57,745 nt of DNA from Solirubrobacterales bacterium (GTDB lineage: Bacteria > Actinomycetota > Thermoleophilia > Solirubrobacterales > 70-9): NCBI GenBank assembly GCA_025936755.1, contig JAICSS010000017.1, positions 1 to 57,745 on the forward strand, written 5' to 3'. Made by a program: the position numbers and the translations under genes. Shown in pieces: positions 12,186-32,010 of this stretch. How positions within the stretch are numbered: the stretch's first letter is position 1; each line of letters begins with the position of its first letter. Under the pieces are notes generated by a model, which saw only the letters and a program-made list of their open reading frames with translations, ran no database searches and was not told the DNA's origin.

Positions 12186-12227
12186 CCAGGATTAAGTGAT
12201 CGGGCGTCCCGGCCGATACCGGTCGGG

Positions 12228-13340
12228 ATGTTCGACGTCGATTCAGCGCTGCGGACCCTGATCGAGCGGGGGGGCTCCGACCTCCACGTCAAGGTCGGGG
12301 TGCCGCCGACGGTGCGGTTGCACGGTGAGCTGGCGCCGCTGGAGGGTTACCAGCCGCTGACCCCGGAGGACACCGAACGGGCCTTCCAGGACATGGCCGA
12401 GGTGCGGTCGCTGTCGGAATTCGAGGAATGCGGCGAGGCCGACTTCTCCTACGCGATCAAGGGCCTCTCGCGCTTCCGCGTCAACGCCTTCAAGCAGCGC
12501 GGCTCGATCTCGATCGTCTGCCGCGCGATCCCCTTCGACATCCGCTCCGTCGACGATCTCGGCCTGCCGCCGGTGGTGACCAAGCTGGCCGAAGAGCAGC
12601 GCGGGATCATCCTCGTCACCGGCACCACCGGCTCGGGCAAGAGCACGACGCTGGCGGCGATGATCGACCACATCAACCGCACCCGCACCGACCACATCGT
12701 CACCCTCGAGGACCCGATCGAGTACCTGCACCCGGACAAAAACTCGATCGTCAACCAGCGCGAAGTCGGCTCCGACACCGAAAGCTTCGCCCGGGCGATG
12801 CGCCGGGTCCTGCGCCAGGACCCCGACGTGATCCTGATCGGCGAGATGCGCGACGAGGAGACGGTGCGCACGGCCCTGTCTGCGGCCGAGACCGGCCACC
12901 TCGTGCTCTCGACCGTCCACACCCTGGACGCGACCGAGACGATCAACCGCATCGTCGACTTCTTCCCGCCCCACCTCCAGCACCAGGCCCGGGTGATGCT
13001 CGCCGCGACCCTCAGGGGGGCGATCGCCCAGCGCCTCGTCCCCGACCTGACCGGCGACGGCCGCGTCCCCGCCTCCGAGATCCTCATCGTCACCGGCCGG
13101 GTCCAGGACCTGATCATGAACCCGGAGGAGACCGGCAAGATCACCGAAGTCATCGCCGAGGGCGAGTACTACGGGATGCGCACCTTCGACCAGTCCCTCA
13201 TGCACTACGTGATGGAGGGCAAGGTCTCCGAGGACGTCGCCCTCGAGTTCGCCTCCAACCCCCACGACTTCAAACTGATGCTGGCGGCCGGCGGCCAGCG
13301 CGCCAGCGGGATCGAGCAGCTCGCACCCGCTACCGAGTAG
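12228..13340 (+). CDS. PilT/PilU-like type IV pilus retraction ATPase
   Basis: A 370-residue hexameric secretion ATPase of the PilT family: Walker A GTTGSGKST at 132-140, Asp box TLEDPIEYLHP, Walker B VILIGEMRDE at 201-210, and the His box STVHT. It differs from the second PilT in this locus by having GTTG instead of GPTG in Walker A and by lacking the AIRNLIRE motif needed for retraction in PilT, so it resembles PilU or an accessory motor. It acts at the cytoplasmic face with PilC. First gene of the pilus locus, 42 bp after sigA. Confidence 0.88.
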   Translation: MFDVDSALRTLIERGGSDLHVKVGVPPTVRLHGELAPLEGYQPLTPEDTERAFQDMAEVRSLSEFEECGEADFSYAIKGLSRFRVNAFKQRGSISIVCRAIPFDIRSVDDLGLPPVVTKLAEEQRGIILVTGTTGSGKSTTLAAMIDHINRTRTDHIVTLEDPIEYLHPDKNSIVNQREVGSDTESFARAMRRVLRQDPDVILIGEMRDEETVRTALSAAETGHLVLSTVHTLDATETINRIVDFFPPHLQHQARVMLAATLRGAIAQRLVPDLTGDGRVPASEILIVTGRVQDLIMNPEETGKITEVIAEGEYYGMRTFDQSLMHYVMEGKVSEDVALEFASNPHDFKLMLAAGGQRASGIEQLAPATE

Positions 13341-13408: not shown

Positions 13409-14740
13409 ATGACGCGAATGATCGCCATCGACCGCTTCATCCTGCTTGTCCGCGACCTGCGGCGCAGCGAGCGCGGGATCGCGGTCCCGACGGCGCTGAT
13501 GGCGCTGGTCGCGACCTTCGCCCTCTCCAGCGTCGCGGTGATGTCCACCCTCGACGTCCAGCAGGGGACGACCCGGGACCACGACTCCAAGGAAGCGATC
13601 GCGGCCGCCGACGCCGGCGCCAACATCGCCCTGCTCAGGCTCAACCGCTACCTGCCGAGCCTGACCGTCGCCCATCCCTGCATCGGAGCCGACGGCGAAT
13701 ACCAGACCGCGGTCAGCGGCTGGTGCCCCGCGACCGCGACCGAATCGGTCGGCCGCGCGACCTACAGCTACGCGATCAGCGCCTACGCCGGCACCGGCAC
13801 GCCGCTGAACGTCGTCTCGGTCGGCTCCTCGGGCACCGTGCAGCGAAGGGTCAACGTCGCGATGACGACCACCAACGGCCAGGGCATCTTCGCCGACGAG
13901 AAATTCATCGGCCAGGACGAAATCACCGTCAAGGGAAACTTCAAAATCGAAGCCGACATCGGGACGAACGGCAGCATCATCCAGAATGGCGGGGCGGGCA
14001 CGGTCTGCGGCGACGAGCGCCACGGCGTCGGCAAAGAAGCGCCGACGCCGAGCTGCTCGGGGGTCAAAACCGAAGAGAACCGCGAACTGCCGGCGATCGT
14101 CCCGCCGTCGAATCTGACTACGGAAAACGCCAACTGCATGCTGTCGCAGAAATGCACCTCCGGCCCCTACGCCGGTCAGGTCGACACTTACACGAAAAGC
14201 AACCCCTGGAGCCTGAGCACGCGGACGATCAACGTCGGCGGCAACGGGACGCTGACGATGAACGGCGGCGACTACTTCATCTGCAAGCTCGAAATCGGGC
14301 CGGGCACGGTCTACATGTCGGCCGGGGCGCACGCGCGGATCTTCATCGACACGCCCGAACACTGCGGGCTGGCCTCAGGCGCGACCCAGGTCAACATCAA
14401 CGGCAACGGGAACCTCGTGTCCAGCGCGTGGAGCCCGCAACAGGGCAGCTACGAAATCCCCCAGATCTACGTGCTCGGCAACGGCGCGGTGAAGATCGGC
14501 GCCAATTCCGGGACCAACCACCTGATGCTCTACGCCCCCCAGAGCCAGGTCACCCTCGAAGGCAACGCCGAATGGATCGGGATGTTCGCCGGCAAGTCGA
14601 TCACCCTCAACGGCAATCCCTACTTCAGGTCGGATCCGCACATCAAGGAACCGAACATCACCTACGCCGGCCGCTTCCAGCGCACCCGCTACGTCGAGTG
14701 CACCGGCGCCACCGCCTCGCCGCCGAACGCCGACTGCTGA
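13409..14740 (+). CDS. PilX-like pilus-associated exported protein
   Basis: 443 residues. The N-terminus (ERGIAVPTALMALVATFALSSV) resembles a prepilin/PilX N-terminal hydrophobic helix, with the EAIAAADAGANIALLRLNRY segment typical of PilX-type proteins. The rest is Gly/Asn-rich and beta-repetitive (for example VNINGNGNLV, KIGANSGTN, VTLEGNAEWIGM, SITLNGNPYF), suggesting a small beta-helix exposed outside. Several Cys residues may form disulfides. The canonical G/FTLxE pilin motif is absent. ATG at 13409 chosen; the frame upstream is a shadow of the ATPase gene. Likely a minor pilus component or cell-surface protein (inference). Confidence 0.65.
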   Translation: MTRMIAIDRFILLVRDLRRSERGIAVPTALMALVATFALSSVAVMSTLDVQQGTTRDHDSKEAIAAADAGANIALLRLNRYLPSLTVAHPCIGADGEYQTAVSGWCPATATESVGRATYSYAISAYAGTGTPLNVVSVGSSGTVQRRVNVAMTTTNGQGIFADEKFIGQDEITVKGNFKIEADIGTNGSIIQNGGAGTVCGDERHGVGKEAPTPSCSGVKTEENRELPAIVPPSNLTTENANCMLSQKCTSGPYAGQVDTYTKSNPWSLSTRTINVGGNGTLTMNGGDYFICKLEIGPGTVYMSAGAHARIFIDTPEHCGLASGATQVNINGNGNLVSSAWSPQQGSYEIPQIYVLGNGAVKIGANSGTNHLMLYAPQSQVTLEGNAEWIGMFAGKSITLNGNPYFRSDPHIKEPNITYAGRFQRTRYVECTGATASPPNADC

Positions 14741-22584: not shown

Positions 22585-22666
22585 CGGTGCCAAAGGCAAA
22601 CCCGCTGCGAGGCGGGGGCGCAAAGCCGACGGGGCTCCCTTGCGGGAGCCGGCCGGGCTACCACCG
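22585..22666 (+). ncRNA. cyclic di-GMP-I riboswitch (GEMM-I) in the pilA leader
   Basis: The sequence matches the GEMM-I aptamer: P1 CGGTG (22585-22589) with CACCG (22662-22666); AAAGGCAAACC; a P1b stem CCCGC/GCGGG capped by a GNRA loop (GCGA); the conserved CGCAAAGCC; and a second hairpin with a perfect 7-bp stem GGCTCCC/GGGAGCC followed by GGGCTACC. The base at 22595 is G, at the position (G20 in the Vibrio aptamer) that favours c-di-GMP; the cGAMP-sensing variants carry A. No intrinsic terminator follows, so control of translation is likely: the pilA Shine-Dalgarno lies in a small GACC/GGTC hairpin at 22722-22735. Confidence 0.9.
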
Positions 22667-22739: not shown

Positions 22740-23195
22740 ATGTTTCTCCAGAATCTCCGGGCCAAGGTTGGCGCCCGGCTCAACGGCGACGGCGAGGCGG
22801 GCTTCACGCTCATCGAGCTCCTCGTCGTGATGCTGATCCTCGGAATCCTGGCCGCGATCGCGCTGCCGGCGTTCTTCAACCAGAAAGACAAGGCCGGCGA
22901 CGCCAAGGCCAAGGAGTACGCGCACTCCGCGCAGGTCGCGATGGAGACCTATTCCACCGACCACAACGGCAGCTACGAAGGCGCCGACGAATCGGCCCTG
23001 ATCGCGATCGAGCCGACGCTTTCGAGCGCCGAAATCACGGTCAACAAAGCCGAAGAAAAGACGTACGAAATCACCTCGAAATCGAGCAACGGCCACGAAT
23101 TCCAGGTGATCAACGAAGCCGGCACCCTCTCCTTCCCCTGCTCGCCCGAAGGCGAAGGCGGTTGTCCGGAAGGCACCGAAGGCTGGGGCGGTTGA
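22740..23195 (+). CDS. pilA: major type IV pilin PilA
   Basis: 151 residues. A basic leader (1-21) ends in Gly21, followed by FTLIELLVVMLILGILAAIA: prepilin peptidase should cut after Gly21 and methylate Phe22; Glu26 is the conserved Glu5 needed for assembly. The C-terminal head has two Cys (134, 142) that can form the D-loop disulfide, and a Glu/Ser-rich surface. It has the strongest ribosome site in the locus, a riboswitch in its leader and a strong terminator after it, so it is a single-gene unit, as expected for the most abundant subunit. Confidence 0.92.
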   Translation: MFLQNLRAKVGARLNGDGEAGFTLIELLVVMLILGILAAIALPAFFNQKDKAGDAKAKEYAHSAQVAMETYSTDHNGSYEGADESALIAIEPTLSSAEITVNKAEEKTYEITSKSSNGHEFQVINEAGTLSFPCSPEGEGGCPEGTEGWGG

Positions 23196-23279: not shown

Positions 23280-23338
23280 TGGCCAGAGCTTCGCGAGCCG
23301 CTAAACGGTTGAGCGATTTGAGCCGATACCTGACTGCG

Positions 23339-25711
23339 ATGCGCAAAGCGACTCCTCACCCTCGCTTCGCGGGGCTGGCATCCGTGCTGCTGGCAGCTGT
23401 GCTCTGCGGGACCTGCGCCCCGGGCGCCCTCGCCGCCCCCGCCTTCTACGACGGCAACTCGGCTGACGGCTCGACCGCGATCTTCAGCACCAAAGAGCAG
23501 ATGGTTCCGGGGGACACCGACCAGGAACTCGACGTCTACGTGCGGGAATTCGACACCGGCCTCGGCGAATACCTGACCCGCGAGGTCTCGATCGGCCCCA
23601 AGGGCGGCAACGACGCCCAGCCCGCCACCTTCGACGGTATGTCCAGCGATGGCAGCGAAGTCTTCTTCTCGACCGCGGAGCCGATGGTCGCCGGCGACAC
23701 CGACCAGGCCGAAGACGTCTACGTCCGCAACCTGGTCGAAAACAGGACCGTCCTCGTCTCGCAGGGAAGCAGCGGCTGCGCCGGCCAGGGCTGCGGCAAC
23801 GGCGCCTTCGACGCCAGCTCCCTCCCCGGCGGAGTCGCCCCCGACGGCGGCGTCGTCTTCTTCGGAACCGACGAGCGGCTCGTCGCCGCGGACCAGGACA
23901 ACGCCTTCGACCTCTACGTCCGCGACGTCGAAGCGGAAACGACCAGCCTCGTCTCCGTTCCCGACCCGAGCTGCGCCGGCTGCGCGAGCGAAGGGCTCGA
24001 CCCGCAGTTCCGCGGCACCGACGCCAGCGGCGACCGGGCGTTCTTCACCACCGCTGAAAAGCTGGCGAGCGCCGACACCGATGCCGGCGAATCGGACATC
24101 TACGCCCGCGACCTCGCGGCCGGGACCACTGCCCTCGTCTCGGAGCCGGGGACCTGTCCGCCGAACCTTGCGGTCGGCCAGAATTGCGAACCGTCCTACG
24201 GCGGCGCCTCCGCCGACGGGTCCCACGTCTTCTTCGAGACCAACGACCGGATCCTCGGTGCCGACACCGATAATTCCCAGGACGTCTACGACTGGTCCGA
24301 AGGGGCCGTCTCGCTCGCCTCGACCGGGCCGGACGGCGGCAACGGCGACTTCAACGTCACCTTCGCCGGTACCACGCCGGACGGCGGGGCTGCGTTCTTC
24401 GAGACCAGCGAGTCGCTCCTCCTCGCCGACGCCGACCTCGCGCAGGACGTCTACCGGCGCTCGGGCGGAACGACCACCCTCGTCTCCTCGGGCGAAGCCG
24501 GCAGGGGGAACCTTGCGGTCGCCGCCTCCTTCGAGTGGGTCTCGCTCTCCGAACCCCAGGTCGTCGCCTTCACCACCGCCGAGCCGCTGGTCGCCGAAGA
24601 CACCGACTCCAGCCAGGACGTCTACATGCGCTCGGGCGGGACCACGACGTTGCTCTCGACCGGGCCCGACGGCGGCAACGGCGAATTCAACGCCATCTTC
24701 GCCGGCGCCGCCGACGACGGCTCGAAGATCTTCATCACCACCGCCGAGCCGCTGGTCGCCGAAGACACCGACTCCAGCCAGGACGTGTACATGCGCTCGG
24801 GCGGCGAGACGACGCTCGTCTCCGGCGGCCAGGTCGGCGGCAACGGCCCCTTCTCCGCCGGGCTGCGAGGAGTCTCGAGCTCGGGCTCTCGCGCTTTCTT
24901 CACCACCCAGGAGCGGCTCACCGTCGACGACGACTTCGCCGGCGAGCAGGACGTCTACGGCTGGACCGAATCCGGCACCCTCCTCGTCTCGGTCGAGAAC
25001 TCGCCCGACCTGGTGATCGGCCCGCCGCCGCCCGCACTGGAAAAAACCAACCCGACTTCGCCGAACCCGTCGACGAACCCGGCGATCGTCGGCCAGGCGG
25101 CCGCGGGCTCGCTGGTCAAGGTCTACAAGACCTCGGACTGCTCGGGCGAAGCGGTCGCCCAGGGATCCGCCGCGCAGCTTGCCAGCCCCGGCCTCACCGT
25201 CACCGTTCCCGTCGCCGCGGGTTCAACCACCACCTACAGGGCGACGGCGGAAGCCGAAGGCGTGGTTTCGGCCTGCTCCGCGCCGATCGCCTACAGGCAG
25301 GAAGACCCGCCCCCGCCGGCGGAAGAAGAATCCGGCGGCGGCGGCGGTGGTGGCGAAACCCCGGCCGGCGGCGGGGGAACCGGGACCACGGGAACGAAGA
25401 CCGGCGGCAAGGCTCCCGGCGGCGGCAAGAGCGGGATCGAATACGTCGCCCCGCAGCTGAAGATCACCTTCGGCCCCGCCTTCAAGACCCGCAAGCGGCG
25501 GCCGGTCTTCCGCTTCGCCGACCTCACCGGGCAGCCGGGCACGAACTTCTTCTGCCGCGTCGACAGGCACCGGTGGAAGGGGTGCACCTCGCCGACGAAG
25601 TTGAAGAAGCTGAAGCTCGGCCGCCACGTCTTCGCGGTCAAGGCGGTCAACGCCGTCGGGACTCCCGGGGCCCGGCCGCTGAAGCGGGCCTTCAAGGTGG
25701 TGCGCCGGTGA
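23339..25711 (+). CDS. secreted nine-repeat (beta-propeller-like) surface protein of the pilus locus
   Basis: 790 residues with a Sec-type signal peptide (MRKATPH..., hydrophobic core ASVLLAAVLCGTCA, cleavage near ALAA/PAF). The mature part holds about nine repeats of roughly 55 residues with the pattern DGSxxFFxTxExLVxxDTDxxQDVYxR, then TTLVS and GGNG, resembling TolB/PD40-type propeller blades with acidic, possibly Ca-binding DTD turns. A Gly-rich linker and a C-terminal Ig-like module (PVFRFADLTGQPGTNFFC to the end) follow; such modules are common in secreted proteins of this class. It lies between pilA and minor pilins, where PilY1 sits in Gram-negatives. Its 3' end overlaps the pilW-like start (GTGA). 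Confidence 0.65.
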   Translation: MRKATPHPRFAGLASVLLAAVLCGTCAPGALAAPAFYDGNSADGSTAIFSTKEQMVPGDTDQELDVYVREFDTGLGEYLTREVSIGPKGGNDAQPATFDGMSSDGSEVFFSTAEPMVAGDTDQAEDVYVRNLVENRTVLVSQGSSGCAGQGCGNGAFDASSLPGGVAPDGGVVFFGTDERLVAADQDNAFDLYVRDVEAETTSLVSVPDPSCAGCASEGLDPQFRGTDASGDRAFFTTAEKLASADTDAGESDIYARDLAAGTTALVSEPGTCPPNLAVGQNCEPSYGGASADGSHVFFETNDRILGADTDNSQDVYDWSEGAVSLASTGPDGGNGDFNVTFAGTTPDGGAAFFETSESLLLADADLAQDVYRRSGGTTTLVSSGEAGRGNLAVAASFEWVSLSEPQVVAFTTAEPLVAEDTDSSQDVYMRSGGTTTLLSTGPDGGNGEFNAIFAGAADDGSKIFITTAEPLVAEDTDSSQDVYMRSGGETTLVSGGQVGGNGPFSAGLRGVSSSGSRAFFTTQERLTVDDDFAGEQDVYGWTESGTLLVSVENSPDLVIGPPPPALEKTNPTSPNPSTNPAIVGQAAAGSLVKVYKTSDCSGEAVAQGSAAQLASPGLTVTVPVAAGSTTTYRATAEAEGVVSACSAPIAYRQEDPPPPAEEESGGGGGGGETPAGGGGTGTTGTKTGGKAPGGGKSGIEYVAPQLKITFGPAFKTRKRRPVFRFADLTGQPGTNFFCRVDRHRWKGCTSPTKLKKLKLGRHVFAVKAVNAVGTPGARPLKRAFKVVRR
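24570..24804. repeat. 165-bp internal duplication, 70-bp near-identical copies
   Basis: Bases 24570-24639 and 24735-24804 differ at a single position (tctac versus tgtac). The offset of 165 bp equals one 55-residue protein repeat, which indicates recent duplication or homogenisation of repeats within the gene. Confidence 0.85.
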
Positions 25712-26277
25712 TCGCCAGGCTGCGGAAGCAGAGCGGGGAGGGGGGCTTCACGCTCGTCGAGCTGCTGGTCTCCTCGATGATGGGCGTCGTCGTCATGGGC
25801 GCGGTCGCCTCCCTCGTGATCAGCGCCGTGCGGGAGCAGCCGAAGATCAGCAAGGAAGTCCAGAACGTCAGCAACGCCCGCTGGATGCTCGAACGCCTCA
25901 CCCACGAACTCCGCAACGGGGTCGCGGTCAAGGAAGGGACCGCCAGCAAAATCTCCTTCGAAGGCTACGTCCGCCGCACCACCTGCGGAGGGTCGACGCC
26001 ACTTGCCGCGGCCAGCCCGGCGATCAAGTGCCGCATCACCTACGAATGCTCGACCACCGCCTGCACCCGCAAGGAGACCAGCCCGGAAACCACCAGCGGG
26101 ACCGCCGAGCCGGTCTTCAGCGGCTTGATCAGCAATCAGATCTTCACCTACGTGCCCAGCGCGGCGAACGCCACCTACGTCAAAGCGACCCTTCAGTTCC
26201 CCGATCCGACCGACGCCGGCTCCCCGCTCGTGATCTCGAGCGGCGCCAGCCTCCGCAACGCCACCCTGGGGTACTGA
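25708..26277 (+). CDS. prepilin-type minor pilin (PilW position)
   Basis: 189 residues. Type III signal: Gly13 followed by FTLVELLVSSMMGVVVMGAV, with Glu18 as the conserved Glu5. The head domain has several Cys (TTCGG, IKCRITYECSTTACT). The GTG start overlaps the stop of the upstream secreted protein (GTGA) and its stop overlaps the next minor pilin (TGATG), so the three are translated together. Minor pilins prime fibre assembly and can present a tip protein. The helix and order fit PilW; the head domain itself shows no clear family match by eye. Confidence 0.8.
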   Translation: MIARLRKQSGEGGFTLVELLVSSMMGVVVMGAVASLVISAVREQPKISKEVQNVSNARWMLERLTHELRNGVAVKEGTASKISFEGYVRRTTCGGSTPLAAASPAIKCRITYECSTTACTRKETSPETTSGTAEPVFSGLISNQIFTYVPSAANATYVKATLQFPDPTDAGSPLVISSGASLRNATLGY

Positions 26278-27674
26278 TGGGCTGCCGGGAGGACAGGGAG
26301 GCCGGGTTCACGATCATCGAGGTCCTGATCGCGATCCTGATCGTCTCGATCGCGTCGATGACGACCTTCACCCTGATGTCGGCCGCGACCCGCAACGCGC
26401 AGCGAGCCGAGGCCAGCCAGGTCGCGCTCGATTACGCCGAACAGGAACTCGAGCTGCTGCGGAGCATGGAAGACAAAAACCTTGCCCTGACCGCGTCGCC
26501 GTCCACCTCGACCAACCCCAACAGCCCCAACAGCCGCGTCGACAACGGGACCTTCGCGCTCTCGCGGCAGCCGCTCGGCAACTACCGCAACCTGGTGGTC
26601 AACGGCGGCAGCCTCTACGGAGGCAGCTACGTCGCCGGCGGCACCGTCAACCCGGGCCCGACCAAATTCACCAGCGGCGACGTCAGCGGCCGGGTCTACC
26701 GCTACATCGTCTGGCGCAACGACGAAAAATGCTCGGAAACGAACTGTCCCGGCAAACAGGACTACAAACAGATCGTCGTCGCGGTGCGGCTGGACACGCC
26801 ACCCAACCAGGCGGCGGAACGCGGATACGTGGAAGTGCAGTCGAACTTCGTCAGCCCGACCGACAACAAGGAAAACGACCCGCTGCCGAATGAGAACGGG
26901 GAAGTGATCACCGCCCAGCAGTTCTTCCTCACCGACACGCCGTGCTCGGCGTCCGGGTCGACCTCGCGCCAGGAACCGACCGCCAACCACCTCCTCCACA
27001 ACACCCTAGGCACCTGTGCCAGCGGCCCGCAGACGGGGACGACCCCGGGCGCGCCGGACGCGCTCCTGCTCGGCAGCCCGCCCGATCCCGACCCCGAAGA
27101 CATCAATGACCCGCTCAAGTACGACTACGCCAACGATTCCTACCTCGACACCTCGCCCGACGCCGGCGTCGGCGTGCAGATCCGCAAAGACGACACCAAC
27201 GGCTGCCACTACACGCCGACCGGAACGACCAATCCCGAGTCGCAGGTGCACCGCTGGGTCACCGACCCGATGGCCGAAAGCTTCGTCCTCAACAGCAAGG
27301 TGACGCTCGAAGTCTTCACCCAGTCGATCAACAAAGCCCAGTCCTCCGGCAAGCTCTGCATCTACCTCTTCAAACGGCACGAAGTCGGGTCGCCGCCGGT
27401 CGCGACCGACACGATGCTGACCGACTCGCTCGGCGGGACCCCCTACTGGACCTACTTCGAATCGCCGATCTGGACGACCGAACTGAAGCCCAAAACCCTG
27501 ACGATGGCCCTCGGCGAAGCGCCGTATACGATCCCGGCCGGCGACCGGCTCGGGGTGGCGTTCAGCGTCGAACGCCAGTCGACCCCGGCCGACGCACTCT
27601 CCTTCATGTACGACCACCCACAAGCCCCGACCCGGATCGAGGTCGACACCCCCACGCCGATCGACGGGGGCTGA
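26277..27674 (+). CDS. large prepilin-type minor pilin (PilV position)
   Basis: 465 residues. Prepilin signal: Gly10 followed by FTIIEVLIAILIVSIASMTTF, Glu15 as Glu5. It is much longer than ordinary minor pilins (about 150-200), with an extra C-terminal beta-rich domain (about 280-465: VGVQIRKDDTNGCHYTP, SFVLNSKVTLEVFTQS, LCIYLFKRHE, LGVAFSVERQ) that looks like a lectin- or carbohydrate-binding-type sandwich. It may act as the pilus tip adhesin (inference). Translation is coupled to the upstream pilin by a TGATG overlap and it is followed 3 bp later by pilD. Confidence 0.75.
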   Translation: MGCREDREAGFTIIEVLIAILIVSIASMTTFTLMSAATRNAQRAEASQVALDYAEQELELLRSMEDKNLALTASPSTSTNPNSPNSRVDNGTFALSRQPLGNYRNLVVNGGSLYGGSYVAGGTVNPGPTKFTSGDVSGRVYRYIVWRNDEKCSETNCPGKQDYKQIVVAVRLDTPPNQAAERGYVEVQSNFVSPTDNKENDPLPNENGEVITAQQFFLTDTPCSASGSTSRQEPTANHLLHNTLGTCASGPQTGTTPGAPDALLLGSPPDPDPEDINDPLKYDYANDSYLDTSPDAGVGVQIRKDDTNGCHYTPTGTTNPESQVHRWVTDPMAESFVLNSKVTLEVFTQSINKAQSSGKLCIYLFKRHEVGSPPVATDTMLTDSLGGTPYWTYFESPIWTTELKPKTLTMALGEAPYTIPAGDRLGVAFSVERQSTPADALSFMYDHPQAPTRIEVDTPTPIDGG

Positions 27675-27677
27675 ACC

Positions 27678-28433
27678 TTGGCCGCAGCCCTGGCCCTCGC
27701 CTTCGCCGGGGGGTTGATCTTCGGCAGCTTCCTCACCGTCGTCGCCCACCGGGTCCCGCGCGGGGAATCGGTCGTCGGCGGCCGCTCGCACTGCCCCCAC
27801 TGCGGGGCGCAGATCGCCGCCTACGACAACGTGCCGGTGCTCTCATGGCTGCTGCTGCGGGGTCGCAGCCGCTGCTGCGGGGAGCCGATCTCACCGCGCT
27901 ACCCGCTCACCGAGCTCGCTCTGGCGGCGCTCTGGACGGCGACGGTCGCCGTTCTCTGGGAGGACCCGGCCGAAATCGCCCTCGGGCTCGTCTTCGTCTT
28001 CACGCTGCTGGCGGTGACGCTGACCGACCTCGAGCGGCGGGTCATCCCCAACAAGATCCTTCTCGCGGCGGCGATCGCCGGCCTGGCCATCGCCGCGGTG
28101 GGCGATCCCTCGAGCCTGCCCGAGAGACTGCTCGCGGCCGCGGCCGCCGGAGGCGTCCTCTTCCTCGTCGTCCTCGCCTATCCCCGCGGGATGGGCCTCG
28201 GCGACGTCAAGCTGACCGCGCTGATGGGTCTCTACCTGGGGCGCAACGTCGCCCCCGCCGTTCTGGTCGCGCTGCTGCTCGGCTCGATCGTCGGCCTGGC
28301 GATGATCGCCCGCCACGGCGCGGCCGCCCGCAAGCAGGCGATCCCGTTTGGGCCGTTTCTTGCAGTCGGCGGCGTGGTCGGCTTGCTGGCGGGCGATCAG
28401 CTGGTCGACCTGTACCTCTCGACCTTCTCCTAG
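27678..28433 (+). CDS. pilD: prepilin peptidase / N-methyltransferase PilD
   Basis: 251 residues, polytopic. The N-terminal methylase segment has CPHC (39-42), AYDNVPVLSWLLLRG and ISPRYPLTE; the peptidase aspartates are Asp117 (LTDLERRVIPN) and Asp176 (GMGLGDVKL). It cleaves and methylates PilA and the minor pilins of this locus. The second zinc-binding pair, usually CRxC, reads SRCC (Ser64, Cys66, Cys67), so metal binding may be altered. TTG start, 3 bp after the upstream pilin gene. Confidence 0.9.
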   Translation: MAAALALAFAGGLIFGSFLTVVAHRVPRGESVVGGRSHCPHCGAQIAAYDNVPVLSWLLLRGRSRCCGEPISPRYPLTELALAALWTATVAVLWEDPAEIALGLVFVFTLLAVTLTDLERRVIPNKILLAAAIAGLAIAAVGDPSSLPERLLAAAAAGGVLFLVVLAYPRGMGLGDVKLTALMGLYLGRNVAPAVLVALLLGSIVGLAMIARHGAAARKQAIPFGPFLAVGGVVGLLAGDQLVDLYLSTFS

Positions 28434-28517: not shown

Positions 28518-29654
28518 ATGCAACTGACGAAACCGATCAACCTTCCGAAGCCCTCGCTCGGCTCGCTGGGCGCCCTGCGCCGCGGCAAGAAGAACGGCAG
28601 CCTCGCCGGCCTCAGCATCGAGGCCGGCAGCCTGGCGGTGGCCGGGGTGGCGGTCAACGGCAGCCCCCAGCTGACCGCCTCGGCCGTGCAGCCCCTGCGG
28701 CCTGGCGTCTTCCACGAGGGCGAGGTGATCGACCCCAGCGGGCTCACGGCCGCGGTCAAGGAGCTCTACTCGCGGCAGAAGCTGCCCAAGCAGGTGCGGC
28801 TCGGGATCGGCAACCAGCGGGTGATCGTCCGCGCCCTGCGGCTGCCCCTGATCGGGGACCCGAAGGAGATGGAGGCGGCGATCCGCTTCCAGGCCCAGGA
28901 GCAGATCCCGATGCCGCTCGACCAGGCGGTGCTCCAGCACCAGGTGGTCGGCGGCGTTCCGGCCGAGGAGGGGGCCACCCCTCAGGTCGACGTCGTCGTC
29001 GTCGCCGCCCGCCGCGAGATGGTCGCCTCCTTCCTCGAGCCGCTGCGCCGGGCCGGGCTCGAGCCCGCCGGCATCGACCTCTCCGCCTTCGGGATGATCC
29101 GGGCGCTGGCGCCGCTGGCCGCCCAGCCGGCGCAGGCCGAGGACGGCGCCGCGGCCTCCCAGGAGTCGATCCTCTACTGCAACGTCGGCGACGTGATGAA
29201 CCTGGCGGTCGCCCGCGGCCGCTCCTGCCTCTTCACCCGCGTCTCGGGGATCGGGATGGAGTCGATGGTCGCCCGGCTCTCGACCGAGCGCGCCCTCAGC
29301 CCCGAACACGCCGAGCAATGGCTGCTCTTCGTCGGCCTGGAGACGCCGGTCGCCGAGATCCAGGGGGACCCCGAGATCGTCGCCGCCGCCCGGCGGGCGA
29401 ACGAAGAGGGGGTCACCGCGATGGTCGACGAGCTGCGCCTCTCCCTCGATTACTACCGCGCGCTCGACAGCGCCGTCCCGGTCTCGCGCGTCGTTCTCTG
29501 CGGGACGGGCAGCGCGATCGCGGGCCTCGCCCCGGCGATGGAAGAGCAGGTCGGGCTGCCGATCTCGGCGCCGCGTCCGGCGGCGCTTTCAGGGCTCGAC
29601 GAGGCCACGGCGGCGCGGCTGGTGCTGCCGCTGGGCCTGGGACTGGAGAGCTGA
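28518..29654 (+). CDS. pilM: type IV pilus assembly protein PilM
   Basis: 378 residues of the actin-like PilM/SHS2 family: LAGLSIEAGSLAVAGVAV at the first subdomain, MEAAIRFQAQEQIPMPLDQAV, the SILYCNVGDVMNLAVARG phosphate-loop strand, and VVLCGTGSAIAGLAPAMEEQV near the C-terminus. PilM binds the cytoplasmic N-terminus of PilN and links the motor to the PilN/PilO alignment complex. It begins after an 84-bp gap, then runs tightly into pilN (3 bp), pilO and the pilP-position gene, forming the alignment operon. Confidence 0.88.
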   Translation: MQLTKPINLPKPSLGSLGALRRGKKNGSLAGLSIEAGSLAVAGVAVNGSPQLTASAVQPLRPGVFHEGEVIDPSGLTAAVKELYSRQKLPKQVRLGIGNQRVIVRALRLPLIGDPKEMEAAIRFQAQEQIPMPLDQAVLQHQVVGGVPAEEGATPQVDVVVVAARREMVASFLEPLRRAGLEPAGIDLSAFGMIRALAPLAAQPAQAEDGAAASQESILYCNVGDVMNLAVARGRSCLFTRVSGIGMESMVARLSTERALSPEHAEQWLLFVGLETPVAEIQGDPEIVAAARRANEEGVTAMVDELRLSLDYYRALDSAVPVSRVVLCGTGSAIAGLAPAMEEQVGLPISAPRPAALSGLDEATAARLVLPLGLGLES

Positions 29655-29657
29655 GGC

Positions 29658-30419
29658 ATGCGTCCGATCGACCTCACTCCCTCGGAGATGCGCCAGGGCG
29701 CCCGCGCCCCGATGCGCACCGGCCCGATTCCCTACATCCTCCTCGGCGCCCTCGTCGCCGTCCTCGCCGGCGTCGCCCTGCTGGTCACCACCGGCAACCA
29801 GGTCTCCGAACGGGAAACCGAAGTGGCGCAGTTGAAGCGCGAAGACTCGGCCGCCAAGCAGGAAGCCCGCCGGCTGGCGCCCTATGTGCAATTCCAGACC
29901 CTGCACGAACAGCGGCTGGCGACGGTCTCCAGCCTCGCCGACAGCCGCTTCGACTGGGAACGCGTGGTCCGCGAACTCTCCCTGGTCCTTCCCGCCGACG
30001 TCTGGCTGACCGAACTGAAGGCCTCGGCTTCGGCTGAAGCCGAAGGGGGCGACAGCGGCCTGCGGAGCTCGATCGCCGGTCCGGCGATGGAACTCGAAGG
30101 CTGCGCCGTCGGTCAGGAGTCGGTCGCACGCTTCGTCACCGTGCTGAAGGACATCGACGGGGTCACCCGCGTCGCCGTCGCCTCCTCTGAACTGCCCTCC
30201 AGCGGCGAAGGGGAAGCCTCCTCGGAAGGCGGGGAATCCGAAGGCGGGAGCGAGTGCCGGACGCGCAAATACATCGCCAAATTCAGCATCGTCGTCGCCT
30301 TCGACGCCGCTCCGGTCCCGATCACCGCCGAAGGCGAAGGCGAAGCTCCGGCGACCGCGACTGAAACGGCGGAAACGACCTCGACCGAAACCGAATCGAC
30401 CGAAGGCGAAGAAGGATGA
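29658..30419 (+). CDS. pilN: type IV pilus alignment protein PilN
   Basis: 253 residues. The N-terminus carries the PilN motif IDLTPSEMR (residues 4-12) that binds PilM; one transmembrane helix follows (about 26-44), then a coiled coil and a PilN-type ferredoxin-like domain (VVRELSLVLPADVWLTELK). An acidic Ser/Glu/Gly-rich insert and a Thr/Glu-rich C-terminal tail are unusual. Its stop overlaps the pilO start (ATGA). Confidence 0.87.
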   Translation: MRPIDLTPSEMRQGARAPMRTGPIPYILLGALVAVLAGVALLVTTGNQVSERETEVAQLKREDSAAKQEARRLAPYVQFQTLHEQRLATVSSLADSRFDWERVVRELSLVLPADVWLTELKASASAEAEGGDSGLRSSIAGPAMELEGCAVGQESVARFVTVLKDIDGVTRVAVASSELPSSGEGEASSEGGESEGGSECRTRKYIAKFSIVVAFDAAPVPITAEGEGEAPATATETAETTSTETESTEGEEG

Positions 30420-31180
30420 GCCAAAGCAATCGCATCATCGTCGCCATGCTCGCCCTCGTCGCCCTCGCGATCGGGTTCTGGATGCTGCTTCTCAGCCCGA
30501 AGAAGGAAGAAGTAAGCAAACTCGACCAGCAGGTCGCGAAACAGGAACAGCTTCTCTCTGCCCACCAGGCGGAAGCCCAGCGAGGCCTTGCTGCGCAGAA
30601 GTCCTTCCCGAGCGCCTACCGGGACCTCGTAGTGCTCGGCAAGGCCGCGCCGGCCGACGACGACACCGCCTCGCTGATCGTGCAGTTGAGCCAGATCGCA
30701 CGAAGCTCGGGGGTGCGGTTCGAGACCTTCGTTCTCGCCCCCGCCAGCGGCGGCGAATCGAAAGCCCCCGAACCGGTTGCGGCTCCCGAACCAGGGCAGC
30801 CCTCCTCCTTCGTCTCGCCAACCGAGGTCGCGGCCTCGACGATGCCGATCGGCGCCTCGATCGGCCCGGCCGGGCTGGCGGTGATGCCGTACACGCTCAC
30901 CTTCAAAGGCAACTTCTTCAACGTCGCCGACTTCATCCACGGGCTCGACTCGCTCGTTCGGTCGAACAACGAAAAGGTCGAGGTGACGGGCCGCCTGGTC
31001 ACGATCAACGGGTTCACCCTCACCGAAGACAGCGTCAAGAGGTTCCCTGCCCTGGAAGCGAGCTTCACGGTCACCACCTTCCTCGTCCCCCCCGAACAGG
31101 GAGTCACCGCGGGGGCCACCCCGAGCAGCCCCGAACCTTCGACCACCCAGGTCTCGACGACGATCGGAGGGACCCCGTGA
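30416..31180 (+). CDS. pilO: type IV pilus alignment protein PilO
   Basis: 254 residues: N-terminal transmembrane helix (about 7-27), a coiled coil (EEVSKLDQQVAKQEQLLSA), then the PilO core with LIVQLSQIARSSGVRFETF and YTLTFKGNFFNVADFIHGLDSLVR. A Pro/Glu linker interrupts the core near 115-130. It pairs with PilN to form the inner-membrane alignment complex. Start and stop overlap the neighbouring genes (ATGA and GTGA). Confidence 0.87.
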   Translation: MSQSNRIIVAMLALVALAIGFWMLLLSPKKEEVSKLDQQVAKQEQLLSAHQAEAQRGLAAQKSFPSAYRDLVVLGKAAPADDDTASLIVQLSQIARSSGVRFETFVLAPASGGESKAPEPVAAPEPGQPSSFVSPTEVAASTMPIGASIGPAGLAVMPYTLTFKGNFFNVADFIHGLDSLVRSNNEKVEVTGRLVTINGFTLTEDSVKRFPALEASFTVTTFLVPPEQGVTAGATPSSPEPSTTQVSTTIGGTP

Positions 31181-32010
31181 AGCGGCTCGGCCCGGAGCTG
31201 AAGATGCCGAAGTTCAAGGGCGGCGAGACGAAGGTCCCGCCCTTCCTCGCGGACCTCTACCACGACATCCGCGACCGCGGGCTGCTGCCCGTGATCGCGC
31301 TGATCGTCGTCGCGATCCTCGCCGCCCCCGTCCTGCTCAAGGACGAAAGCGACAAGGCATCCGCGCCGCCCGCTCCGCCCGCTGGAAACCCGGGCATCGC
31401 GGGCGCTTCCGCCAAGACCCTGACCGTGGTCAAATCCTCACCGGGGCTGCGCGACTACAAGGAACGCCTGCGGCGTCGCGAGCCTTCGAACCCCTTCAGG
31501 CAGCACTACACGGGCCCCGTCCTCCAGGGCTCGCAACTCAACGAAGCCAGCACGACGACCTCGACGGTCGAAGAAGGCTCGAGCAGCGGCCCGGAAGCTC
31601 CCTCGTCGAGCGGCGGCACGGTCACGACCACCACGCGGCACCGGCTGATCTTCTTCTCCTTTGCGGTCGACGTGCGGATCGGCAAGGTGCGGACGAAGCC
31701 GGACGGGACGCTGGAAAAATCGGAACCGGAAGACCGCGAAAAAGTGCTCGCGCCGGCCGCGCTCCCGGGGGAGAAGACCCCGGTCGTCACCTATCTCGGC
31801 CTCGGCGACAAGGGCCACAACCCCTTGTTCATGGTCTCCGAAGAAGTCAGCGCCGTGTTCGGCGAAGGCAAGTGCGTCTCGGGCACCGGTCGCTGCCAGC
31901 TGATCGAACTGGAACCGGGGATCCCGGAGATCTTCGAATACGGCGAAAACAAGGTTCGCTACAAGATCAACGTGCTCAAGATCGTCCCCGTCGTCACTCA
32001 TAAATCCTGA
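31177..32010 (+). CDS. single-pass membrane protein at the PilP position
   Basis: 277 residues: a basic N-terminus, one transmembrane helix (about 35-54, GLLPVIALIVVAILAAPVLL), a Pro/Ala and Ser/Thr-rich linker (to about 150), then a small beta-rich domain (RLIFFSFAVDVRIGKVRT, VVTYLGLGDKGHNPLFMVSE, CQLIELEPGIPEIF) with two Cys. Gene order pilM-N-O-this gene matches PilP, which is normally a lipoprotein bridging PilO to the secretin; no lipobox is present and no secretin is found. It may cap the alignment complex in a monoderm (inference). GTG start overlaps pilO. Confidence 0.6.
   Translation: MKRLGPELKMPKFKGGETKVPPFLADLYHDIRDRGLLPVIALIVVAILAAPVLLKDESDKASAPPAPPAGNPGIAGASAKTLTVVKSSPGLRDYKERLRRREPSNPFRQHYTGPVLQGSQLNEASTTTSTVEEGSSSGPEAPSSSGGTVTTTTRHRLIFFSFAVDVRIGKVRTKPDGTLEKSEPEDREKVLAPAALPGEKTPVVTYLGLGDKGHNPLFMVSEEVSAVFGEGKCVSGTGRCQLIELEPGIPEIFEYGENKVRYKINVLKIVPVVTHKS

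What the first reader, a model, noticed from the sequence alone, without database searches (positions are those of the whole stretch)
23339..25711. Nine-repeat propeller-like secreted protein in the PilY1 position
Between pilA and two minor pilins lies an exported protein of about nine 55-residue repeats (FFxTxExLVxxDTDxxQDVYxR) plus an Ig-like C-terminal domain. PilY1, a beta-propeller tip protein, sits beside minor pilin genes in Gram-negatives. This could be an unrelated functional analogue, with the acidic DTD turns possibly binding Ca2+.
Basis: inference. Interest (0 to 1): 0.6.

Follow-up and report, generated by a model that had tools for sequence, protein, structure and literature searches.

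The report
Nine-bladed propeller in pilus operon
A soil actinobacterium (order Solirubrobacterales) carries, inside its type IV pilus operon, a secreted protein predicted to fold into a nine-bladed propeller; it sits where other bacteria keep the pilus-tip adhesin PilY1 but is unrelated to it in sequence, so it is probably an independently recruited pilus-associated adhesin.

Summary
Observation confirmed; interpretation partly supported. Window 23339-25711 encodes a 790-aa secreted protein ('X'): signal peptide, exactly nine repeats, an Ig-like domain, a Gly/Pro linker and a basic C-terminal Ig-like domain. AlphaFold2 gives nine four-stranded blades (pLDDT 84, pTM 0.85). Its nearest solved folds are TolB/S9-peptidase propellers and the nine-bladed eIF2A. 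It has no PilY1 domain (PF05567) and no PilY1 calcium motif.

The pilus link is strong. X overlaps the PilW-like minor-pilin gene by 4 bp, ahead of PilV, PilD, PilM, PilN and PilO. All three full-length orthologues (44-55% identical; Solirubrobacterales MAGs) keep the order pilA-terminator-promoter-X-PilW-PilV. A sigma-WhiG-type promoter lies 9 bp before the start codon; in Rubrobacter that sigma factor makes pili c-di-GMP-controlled. pilA carries a c-di-GMP-I riboswitch.

Against a core PilY1 role: X is rare (4 of about 232 genomes of the order), has been lost in a close relative (G007) that keeps PilW and PilV, and related repeat proteins occur away from pili.

Best reading: an accessory, c-di-GMP-regulated pilus-associated (probably tip) adhesin built on a TolB-like propeller, analogous but not homologous to PilY1. 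Ca2+ binding is unproven. New variant of a known kind.

The parts
22585..22665 (+). c-di-GMP-I riboswitch aptamer (RF01051) in the pilA leader
   Evidence: cmscan 56.8 bits, gathering score 35
22740..23195 (+). pilA, major type IV pilin (151 aa, GFTLIELL)
   Evidence: N_methyl PF07963 34.7 bits; TIGR02532 32.5 bits
23241..23273 (+). strong intrinsic terminator that separates pilA from the repeat gene (15-bp stem, CTTTTG tail)
   Evidence: a G+C-rich hairpin followed by a T-rich stretch is visible at the same place in the three orthologous loci
23302..23329 (+). sigma-WhiG/FliA-type promoter TAAA-N16-GCCGATAC, 9 bp before the ATG
   Evidence: 1 mismatch to the consensus; 0.1 such matches expected per window; only exact TAAA-N14..17-GCCGATA in the 2.4-Mb genome, the reversed control pattern also giving one; conserved in L065 and L070 (1 mismatch) and weakly in L051 (3 mismatches)
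23339..25711 (+). gene X: secreted nine-repeat propeller protein, 790 aa
23339..23434 (+). Sec-type signal peptide (residues about 1-32); no GFxxxE prepilin motif, no lipobox
   Evidence: read from the sequence; residues 1-33 are low-confidence in the model
23444..24991 (+). nine-bladed propeller, residues 36-551, net charge -63; blades at residues 36-82, 96-139, 159-204, 223-266, 286-326, 341-381, 396-438, 452-493, 507-551
   Evidence: AF2 strand assignment; charge
25019..25303 (+). Ig-like domain (residues about 561-655), Cys601/Cys646 conserved
25304..25438 (+). Gly/Pro-rich linker
   Evidence: sequence; low pLDDT from residue 660 onward
25442..25708 (+). basic C-terminal Ig-like domain (residues about 702-790; +20 over residues 700-790), Cys739/Cys749
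25708..26277 (+). PilW-like minor pilin (GTG start overlaps X by 4 bp)
   Evidence: N_methyl 20.5 bits against cut-off 21.2; GFTLVE motif
26277..27674 (+). PilV-like large minor pilin (465 aa)
   Evidence: TIGR02523 type_IV_pilV 30.7 bits (below its curated cut-off of 52.2), N_methyl 25.4 bits over cut-off
27678..28433 (+). PilD-like prepilin peptidase
   Evidence: by sequence and position; syntenic in relatives
28518..29654 (+). PilM
   Evidence: TIGR01175 142.3 bits, over its cut-off
29658..30419 (+). PilN
   Evidence: PF05137 27.3 bits, over its cut-off
30416..31180 (+). PilO
   Evidence: PF04350 32 bits, over its cut-off
31177..32010 (+). last gene of the pil run, PilP-like by position only
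   Evidence: no Pfam match; syntenic in relatives
13418..14740 (+). PilX-like large protein; its homologues occupy X's slot in four relatives
   Evidence: DUF7305 25.1 bits, below its cut-off of 27; synteny
12192..12219 (+). second WhiG-type promoter (2 mismatches), 8 bp before the pilT-like gene at 12228

Best explanation
X is an accessory component of a c-di-GMP-controlled type IVa pilus. It is made from a sigma-WhiG-type promoter as the first gene of the X-PilW-PilV-PilD-PilM-PilN-PilO operon and exported by Sec. It folds into a very acidic nine-bladed TolB/PD40-type propeller carried on two Ig-like domains. Most likely the Ig-like part or the propeller docks on the minor-pilin (PilW/PilV/PilX) tip complex, and the propeller is displayed as a ligand-binding head, as PilY1's propeller is in Gram-negatives. 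Shown: gene, nine repeats, promoter match, gene overlap, conserved synteny. Predicted: the fold. Inferred: export, docking on minor pilins, display on the pilus, adhesion.
For: Gene overlap with PilW, then PilV. All three full-length orthologues lie in the same slot, pilA-X-PilW-PilV. pilA-terminator-promoter-X architecture in all four, with the promoter 9 bp before the ATG here and unique as an exact match in the genome. The genome has a true FliA/WhiG sigma factor (286 bits, cut-off 189.6) and no detected flagellin; in Rubrobacter this sigma factor controls pili (PMC8325347). Nine-bladed propeller predicted twice. The PilM tree groups the X-bearing loci (93/89), so X travels with the pilus locus. 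X is at or near the bottom in identity among the pil genes in each comparison, as expected of an exposed protein. In a sister clade the same slot holds a secreted protein made of related Ig-like domains only. Precedent: TM7x PilX2 carries an RCC1 propeller and is needed for its pilus function (PMC12206443).
Against: X is absent from G007, whose locus otherwise matches, and from most T4P loci in the order, so it is not a core part. Related repeat proteins occur away from pili in the same genome and in G013 (L071). No direct evidence of pilus association. The C-terminal domain type is common among this lineage's surface proteins.
Confidence: 0.58

Rival explanations
1. X is a general secreted surface propeller protein of the lineage that happens to be co-transcribed with the pilus genes; it acts in the cell wall or matrix and is not physically part of the pilus.
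For: The same repeat and Ig types occur in other exported proteins at non-pilus loci of this genome; G013 has a nine-repeat relative with a related C-terminal domain away from its pil genes. Patchy presence.
Against: Every match covering the full length is in the same slot; translational overlap with PilW; conserved own WhiG-type promoter.
Confidence: 0.22
2. X is a true PilY1 equivalent needed to prime pilus assembly together with the minor pilins.
For: Gene position and a Sec-exported propeller, as PilY1 (PMC7541494; PMC13190605).
Against: G007 keeps orthologous PilW, PilV and the machinery without X; many related loci lack it; no PF05567 match in the protein or genome.
Confidence: 0.12
3. 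X is an extracellular enzyme or substrate-binding protein (S9-peptidase-like or glycan-active propeller) whose genomic position is incidental.
For: Closest structural neighbours include S9 peptidase propellers.
Against: No alpha/beta-hydrolase or other catalytic domain; the C-terminus is Ig-like; no Pfam enzyme match.
Confidence: 0.05

Closest known systems
PilY1 / PilC1 (PF05567), tip protein of Gram-negative type IVa pili
   Same: Sec-exported non-pilin with a propeller; gene next to minor pilins; presumed display on pili
   Different: No PF05567 match, nine rather than seven blades, propeller N-terminal rather than C-terminal, no Dx[DN]xDGxxD motif, absent from a close relative with the same minor pilins, no detected secretin (monoderm-type machine)
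PilX2 of Nanosynbacter TM7x (RCC1-type seven-bladed propeller; PMC12206443)
   Same: A propeller other than the PilY1 type recruited to a pilus in a lineage far from Proteobacteria
   Different: There the propeller is fused to a minor pilin; here it is a separate Sec-exported protein of a different propeller family
TolB / PD40 (PF07676) propellers and S9-peptidase propellers
   Same: Repeat pattern SxDGxxVFFxT...DxxxDVYxR; top Foldseek matches; an orthologue matches PD40 just over cut-off
   Different: Nine blades, a longer acidic hairpin, Ig-like C-terminal domains, no catalytic domain, pilus operon
eIF2A / eIF3b nine-bladed propellers
   Same: Blade number and overall ring size (3wj9 Z 16.2, rmsd 4.3, 353 aligned)
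   Different: Eukaryotic intracellular translation factors; no sequence relation claimed
Modular pilins PilB/PilC of Streptococcus sanguinis (PMC6916266)
   Same: Large adhesion-type domain supplied by the minor-pilin part of a monoderm pilus
   Different: X is not a pilin: no class III signal sequence

Membership tests
PilY1 (PF05567) | PF05567 propeller domain | tested here: not met
   No PF05567 hit for X at E<=10; none in the whole genome
PilY1 (PF05567) | Seven-bladed modified propeller at the C-terminus | tested here: not met
   Nine predicted blades, N-terminal
PilY1 (PF05567) | Ca2+ motif Dx[DN]xDGxxD | tested here: not met
   Zero matches in X and in four homologues; DxDxxxDxY instead
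PilY1 (PF05567) | Type I signal peptide, soluble non-pilin | tested here: met
   Read from the sequence; no GFxxxE motif. No signal-peptide predictor was run
PilY1 (PF05567) | Gene in a minor-pilin cluster | tested here: met
   4 of 4 genomes with a full-length copy
PilY1 (PF05567) | Location at the pilus tip and need for pilus assembly | not testable with these tools
   Needs experiments; natural absence in G007 argues against need
PD40/TolB-type propeller (PF07676) | Match to PF07676 over its cut-off | tested here: inconclusive
   Window protein: no hit; orthologue L065 21.6 bits against cut-off 20.9; L070 11.5 bits, below
PD40/TolB-type propeller (PF07676) | Propeller fold nearest to TolB/S9 propellers | tested here: met
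   Foldseek top 50 almost entirely S9 and TolB structures, E about 1e-8 to 1e-10
Nine-bladed propeller | Nine four-stranded blades in one closed ring | tested here: inconclusive
   36 strands in nine sets of four, pTM 0.85; eIF2A/eIF3b among best matches but tied with eight-bladed DPP4; ring closure not seen directly
Modular type IV pilin | Class III prepilin signal GFxxxE | tested here: not met
   N-terminus MRKATPHPRFAGLASVLLAAVLCGTCAPGALAA
Sigma-WhiG regulon | TAAA-N15/16-GCCGATAA promoter and a WhiG gene | tested here: met
   1 mismatch, conserved in orthologues; WhiG-type sigma 286 bits
Sigma-WhiG regulon | RsiG anti-sigma factor present and transcription start at the promoter | not tested
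   RsiG was not searched for; a transcription start needs RNA data
c-di-GMP-I riboswitch (pilA leader) | RF01051 score over the gathering threshold | tested here: met
   56.8 against 35 bits

The most novel reading that the evidence does not exclude
A nine-bladed TolB-type propeller has been recruited, independently of PilY1 and of the RCC1 propeller of TM7x, as the tip head of an actinobacterial type IVa pilus, and its operon is switched by c-di-GMP through sigma-WhiG while pilA is switched by a c-di-GMP riboswitch.
Probability: 0.35. Interest if true: 0.7.

Novelty: new variant of a known kind. Interest (0 to 1): 0.5.

Why it matters
If X sits on the pilus, it would be a third unrelated kind of propeller recruited to type IV pili, which would suggest that a propeller head is a general answer to the tip-adhesin problem. 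It would also give a monoderm actinobacterial type IVa pilus (type IVa pili there are barely studied; the review PMC6916266 describes the actinobacterial pili studied by then as Tfpc, the Tad-type) a specific testable adhesin. The sister genomes make a natural series of slot contents (propeller plus Ig, Ig only, nothing, PilX-like).

Tried and rejected
PilY1 homology: rejected. Homology to any solved structure by sequence: none. PilY1 was not among the top 50 fold matches; this does not exclude fold similarity. Lipoprotein: the two Cys in the signal peptide do not fit a lipobox and are not conserved. Canonical Ca2+ motifs, RGD and MIDAS: absent in X; 25 of 27 Asp of the turn motif are invariant in four orthologues, but the same turn is found in the off-locus homologue, so this is not a pilus-specific signature. 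S9 peptidase: rejected, no catalytic domain. The viral structure library gave only generic propeller matches. A public genome scan found only the three known orthologues; widening to the class added no further full-length copy. One PF05567 hit in G035 (L107) lies in a pilV-pilW-pilX-pilY1 cluster of proteobacterial type, probably a foreign contig in that MAG.

Full report
What is there. The window (contig 45 of a 2.4-Mb genome) carries a type IVa pilus cluster: a PilT-like ATPase (12228), a PilX-like protein (13418), PilB, PilT, PilC, then pilA (22740), the repeat gene X (23339-25711), a PilW-like and a PilV-like minor pilin, PilD, PilM, PilN, PilO and a PilP-like gene. The three public records with orthologues are two Solirubrobacterales MAGs and one 'Actinobacteria' MAG. 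No secretin and no flagellin were detected in the genome, consistent with a monoderm-type pilus machine.

The protein. X has a Sec-type signal peptide, nine repeats (27-residue cores share 10.2 identical residues on average; random windows 2.1, maximum 4.1), an Ig-like domain with a conserved Cys pair, a Gly/Pro linker and a basic C-terminal Ig-like domain. The propeller part has net charge -63 and the C-terminal domain +20. AlphaFold2 of the whole protein with three orthologues and of the propeller alone with four homologues (pLDDT 84.2, pTM 0.85) both give nine sets of four strands. Alignments were shallow (4 and 5 rows). Foldseek ranks TolB and S9-peptidase propellers first. By overall shape the best matches are a centriole linker protein (9qzc_i, Z 16.9), the nine-bladed eIF2A (3wj9, Z 16.2, rmsd 4.3, 353 aligned), the eight-bladed DPP4 group and eIF3b, all within about 2.5 Z units. 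So 'propeller' is well supported; 'nine blades in one closed ring' is likely but not proved. The repeats are of the PD40 type: an orthologue scores just over the Pfam cut-off, the window protein itself does not.

The pilus link. X's stop codon overlaps the start of PilW by 4 bp. Three orthologues (55, 49 and 44% identical over the aligned stretch) occur in L065 (G026), L051 (G002) and L070 (G031), each as pilA-X-PilW-PilV. A search of 232 genomes of the order and 399 of the class found no other full-length copy. The PilM tree puts the X-bearing loci together (93/89), with G007, which has the same minor pilins but no X, nested inside, indicating loss there. The sister clade (100/99) has in the same slot, between pilA and PilD, a secreted protein with related Ig-like domains and no repeats (G003, G009, G010, G011; in G001 it is interrupted by a transposase gene). 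Further relatives have a PilX-like gene in the slot. X is at or near the bottom in identity among pil genes in each comparison. A variable, fast-evolving, exported slot product suits an adhesin and argues against a core assembly factor.

Regulation. pilA ends in a strong terminator. Between it and X lies TAAA-N16-GCCGATAC, one mismatch from the WhiG/FliA consensus, 9 bp before the ATG, which suggests a nearly leaderless transcript. It is the best match in the window (0.1 expected at that stringency) and the only exact TAAA-N14..17-GCCGATA in the genome; the reversed control pattern also occurs once, so it is the position that carries the weight. Orthologues have it at 1, 1 and 3 mismatches. 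Similar sites lie upstream of pilA, pilD, pilM and pilX in many relatives. The genome encodes a clear WhiG-type sigma factor. In Rubrobacter radiotolerans WhiG with RsiG and c-di-GMP controls type IV pili (PMC8325347); that paper reports RsiG homologues in Thermoleophilia, but RsiG was not searched for here. The pilA leader has a c-di-GMP-I riboswitch, also found in three related loci.

What it is not. It is not a member of the PilY1 family: no PF05567 match, no PilY1 Ca2+ motif, wrong blade number and domain order. It may still work like PilY1. The Asp turn DxDxxxD[VIL]Y is invariant at 25 of 27 Asp in four orthologues, against 29% invariance over the propeller, but it is equally present in the off-locus homologue of G013, so it marks the propeller family; Ca2+ binding remains an untested possibility.

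Verdict. X is most likely an accessory pilus-associated adhesin with a TolB-type propeller head, expressed with the minor pilins under c-di-GMP/WhiG control (confidence 0.58). Physical association with the pilus, adhesion and metal binding are inferences. Most genomes used are draft assemblies, the public records with orthologues being MAGs.

Noticed in passing
window 22585-22665: c-di-GMP-I riboswitch (RF01051, 56.8 bits) in the pilA leader; also found in L051, L063 and L070.
   Followed up: yes
window 12192-12219; L050-L088: WhiG-type promoters recur upstream of pil genes (pilT, pilA, pilD, pilM, pilX) across Solirubrobacterales relatives, suggesting that the WhiG-pilus link known from Rubrobacter extends to this order.
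   Followed up: partly
L050 3005-4390 (G001): A transposase-like gene interrupts the slot gene between pilA and pilD: a natural knock-out of the Ig-only version.
   Followed up: partly
L107 (G035:C111): Canonical pilV-pilW-pilX-pilY1 cluster in a Solirubrobacterales MAG with 5% contamination; probably a foreign contig.
   Followed up: partly
L071 7102-8976 (G013): A nine-repeat relative of X with a related C-terminal domain, away from that genome's pil genes; shows that the nine-repeat number is a property of the family.
   Followed up: partly
G000 contigs 1, 16, 25, 26, 33 (L100-L105): Several exported proteins of about 1000-1300 aa carry weaker copies of the same repeat; several lie beside other large exported-protein genes and TetR-like regulators.
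   Followed up: partly
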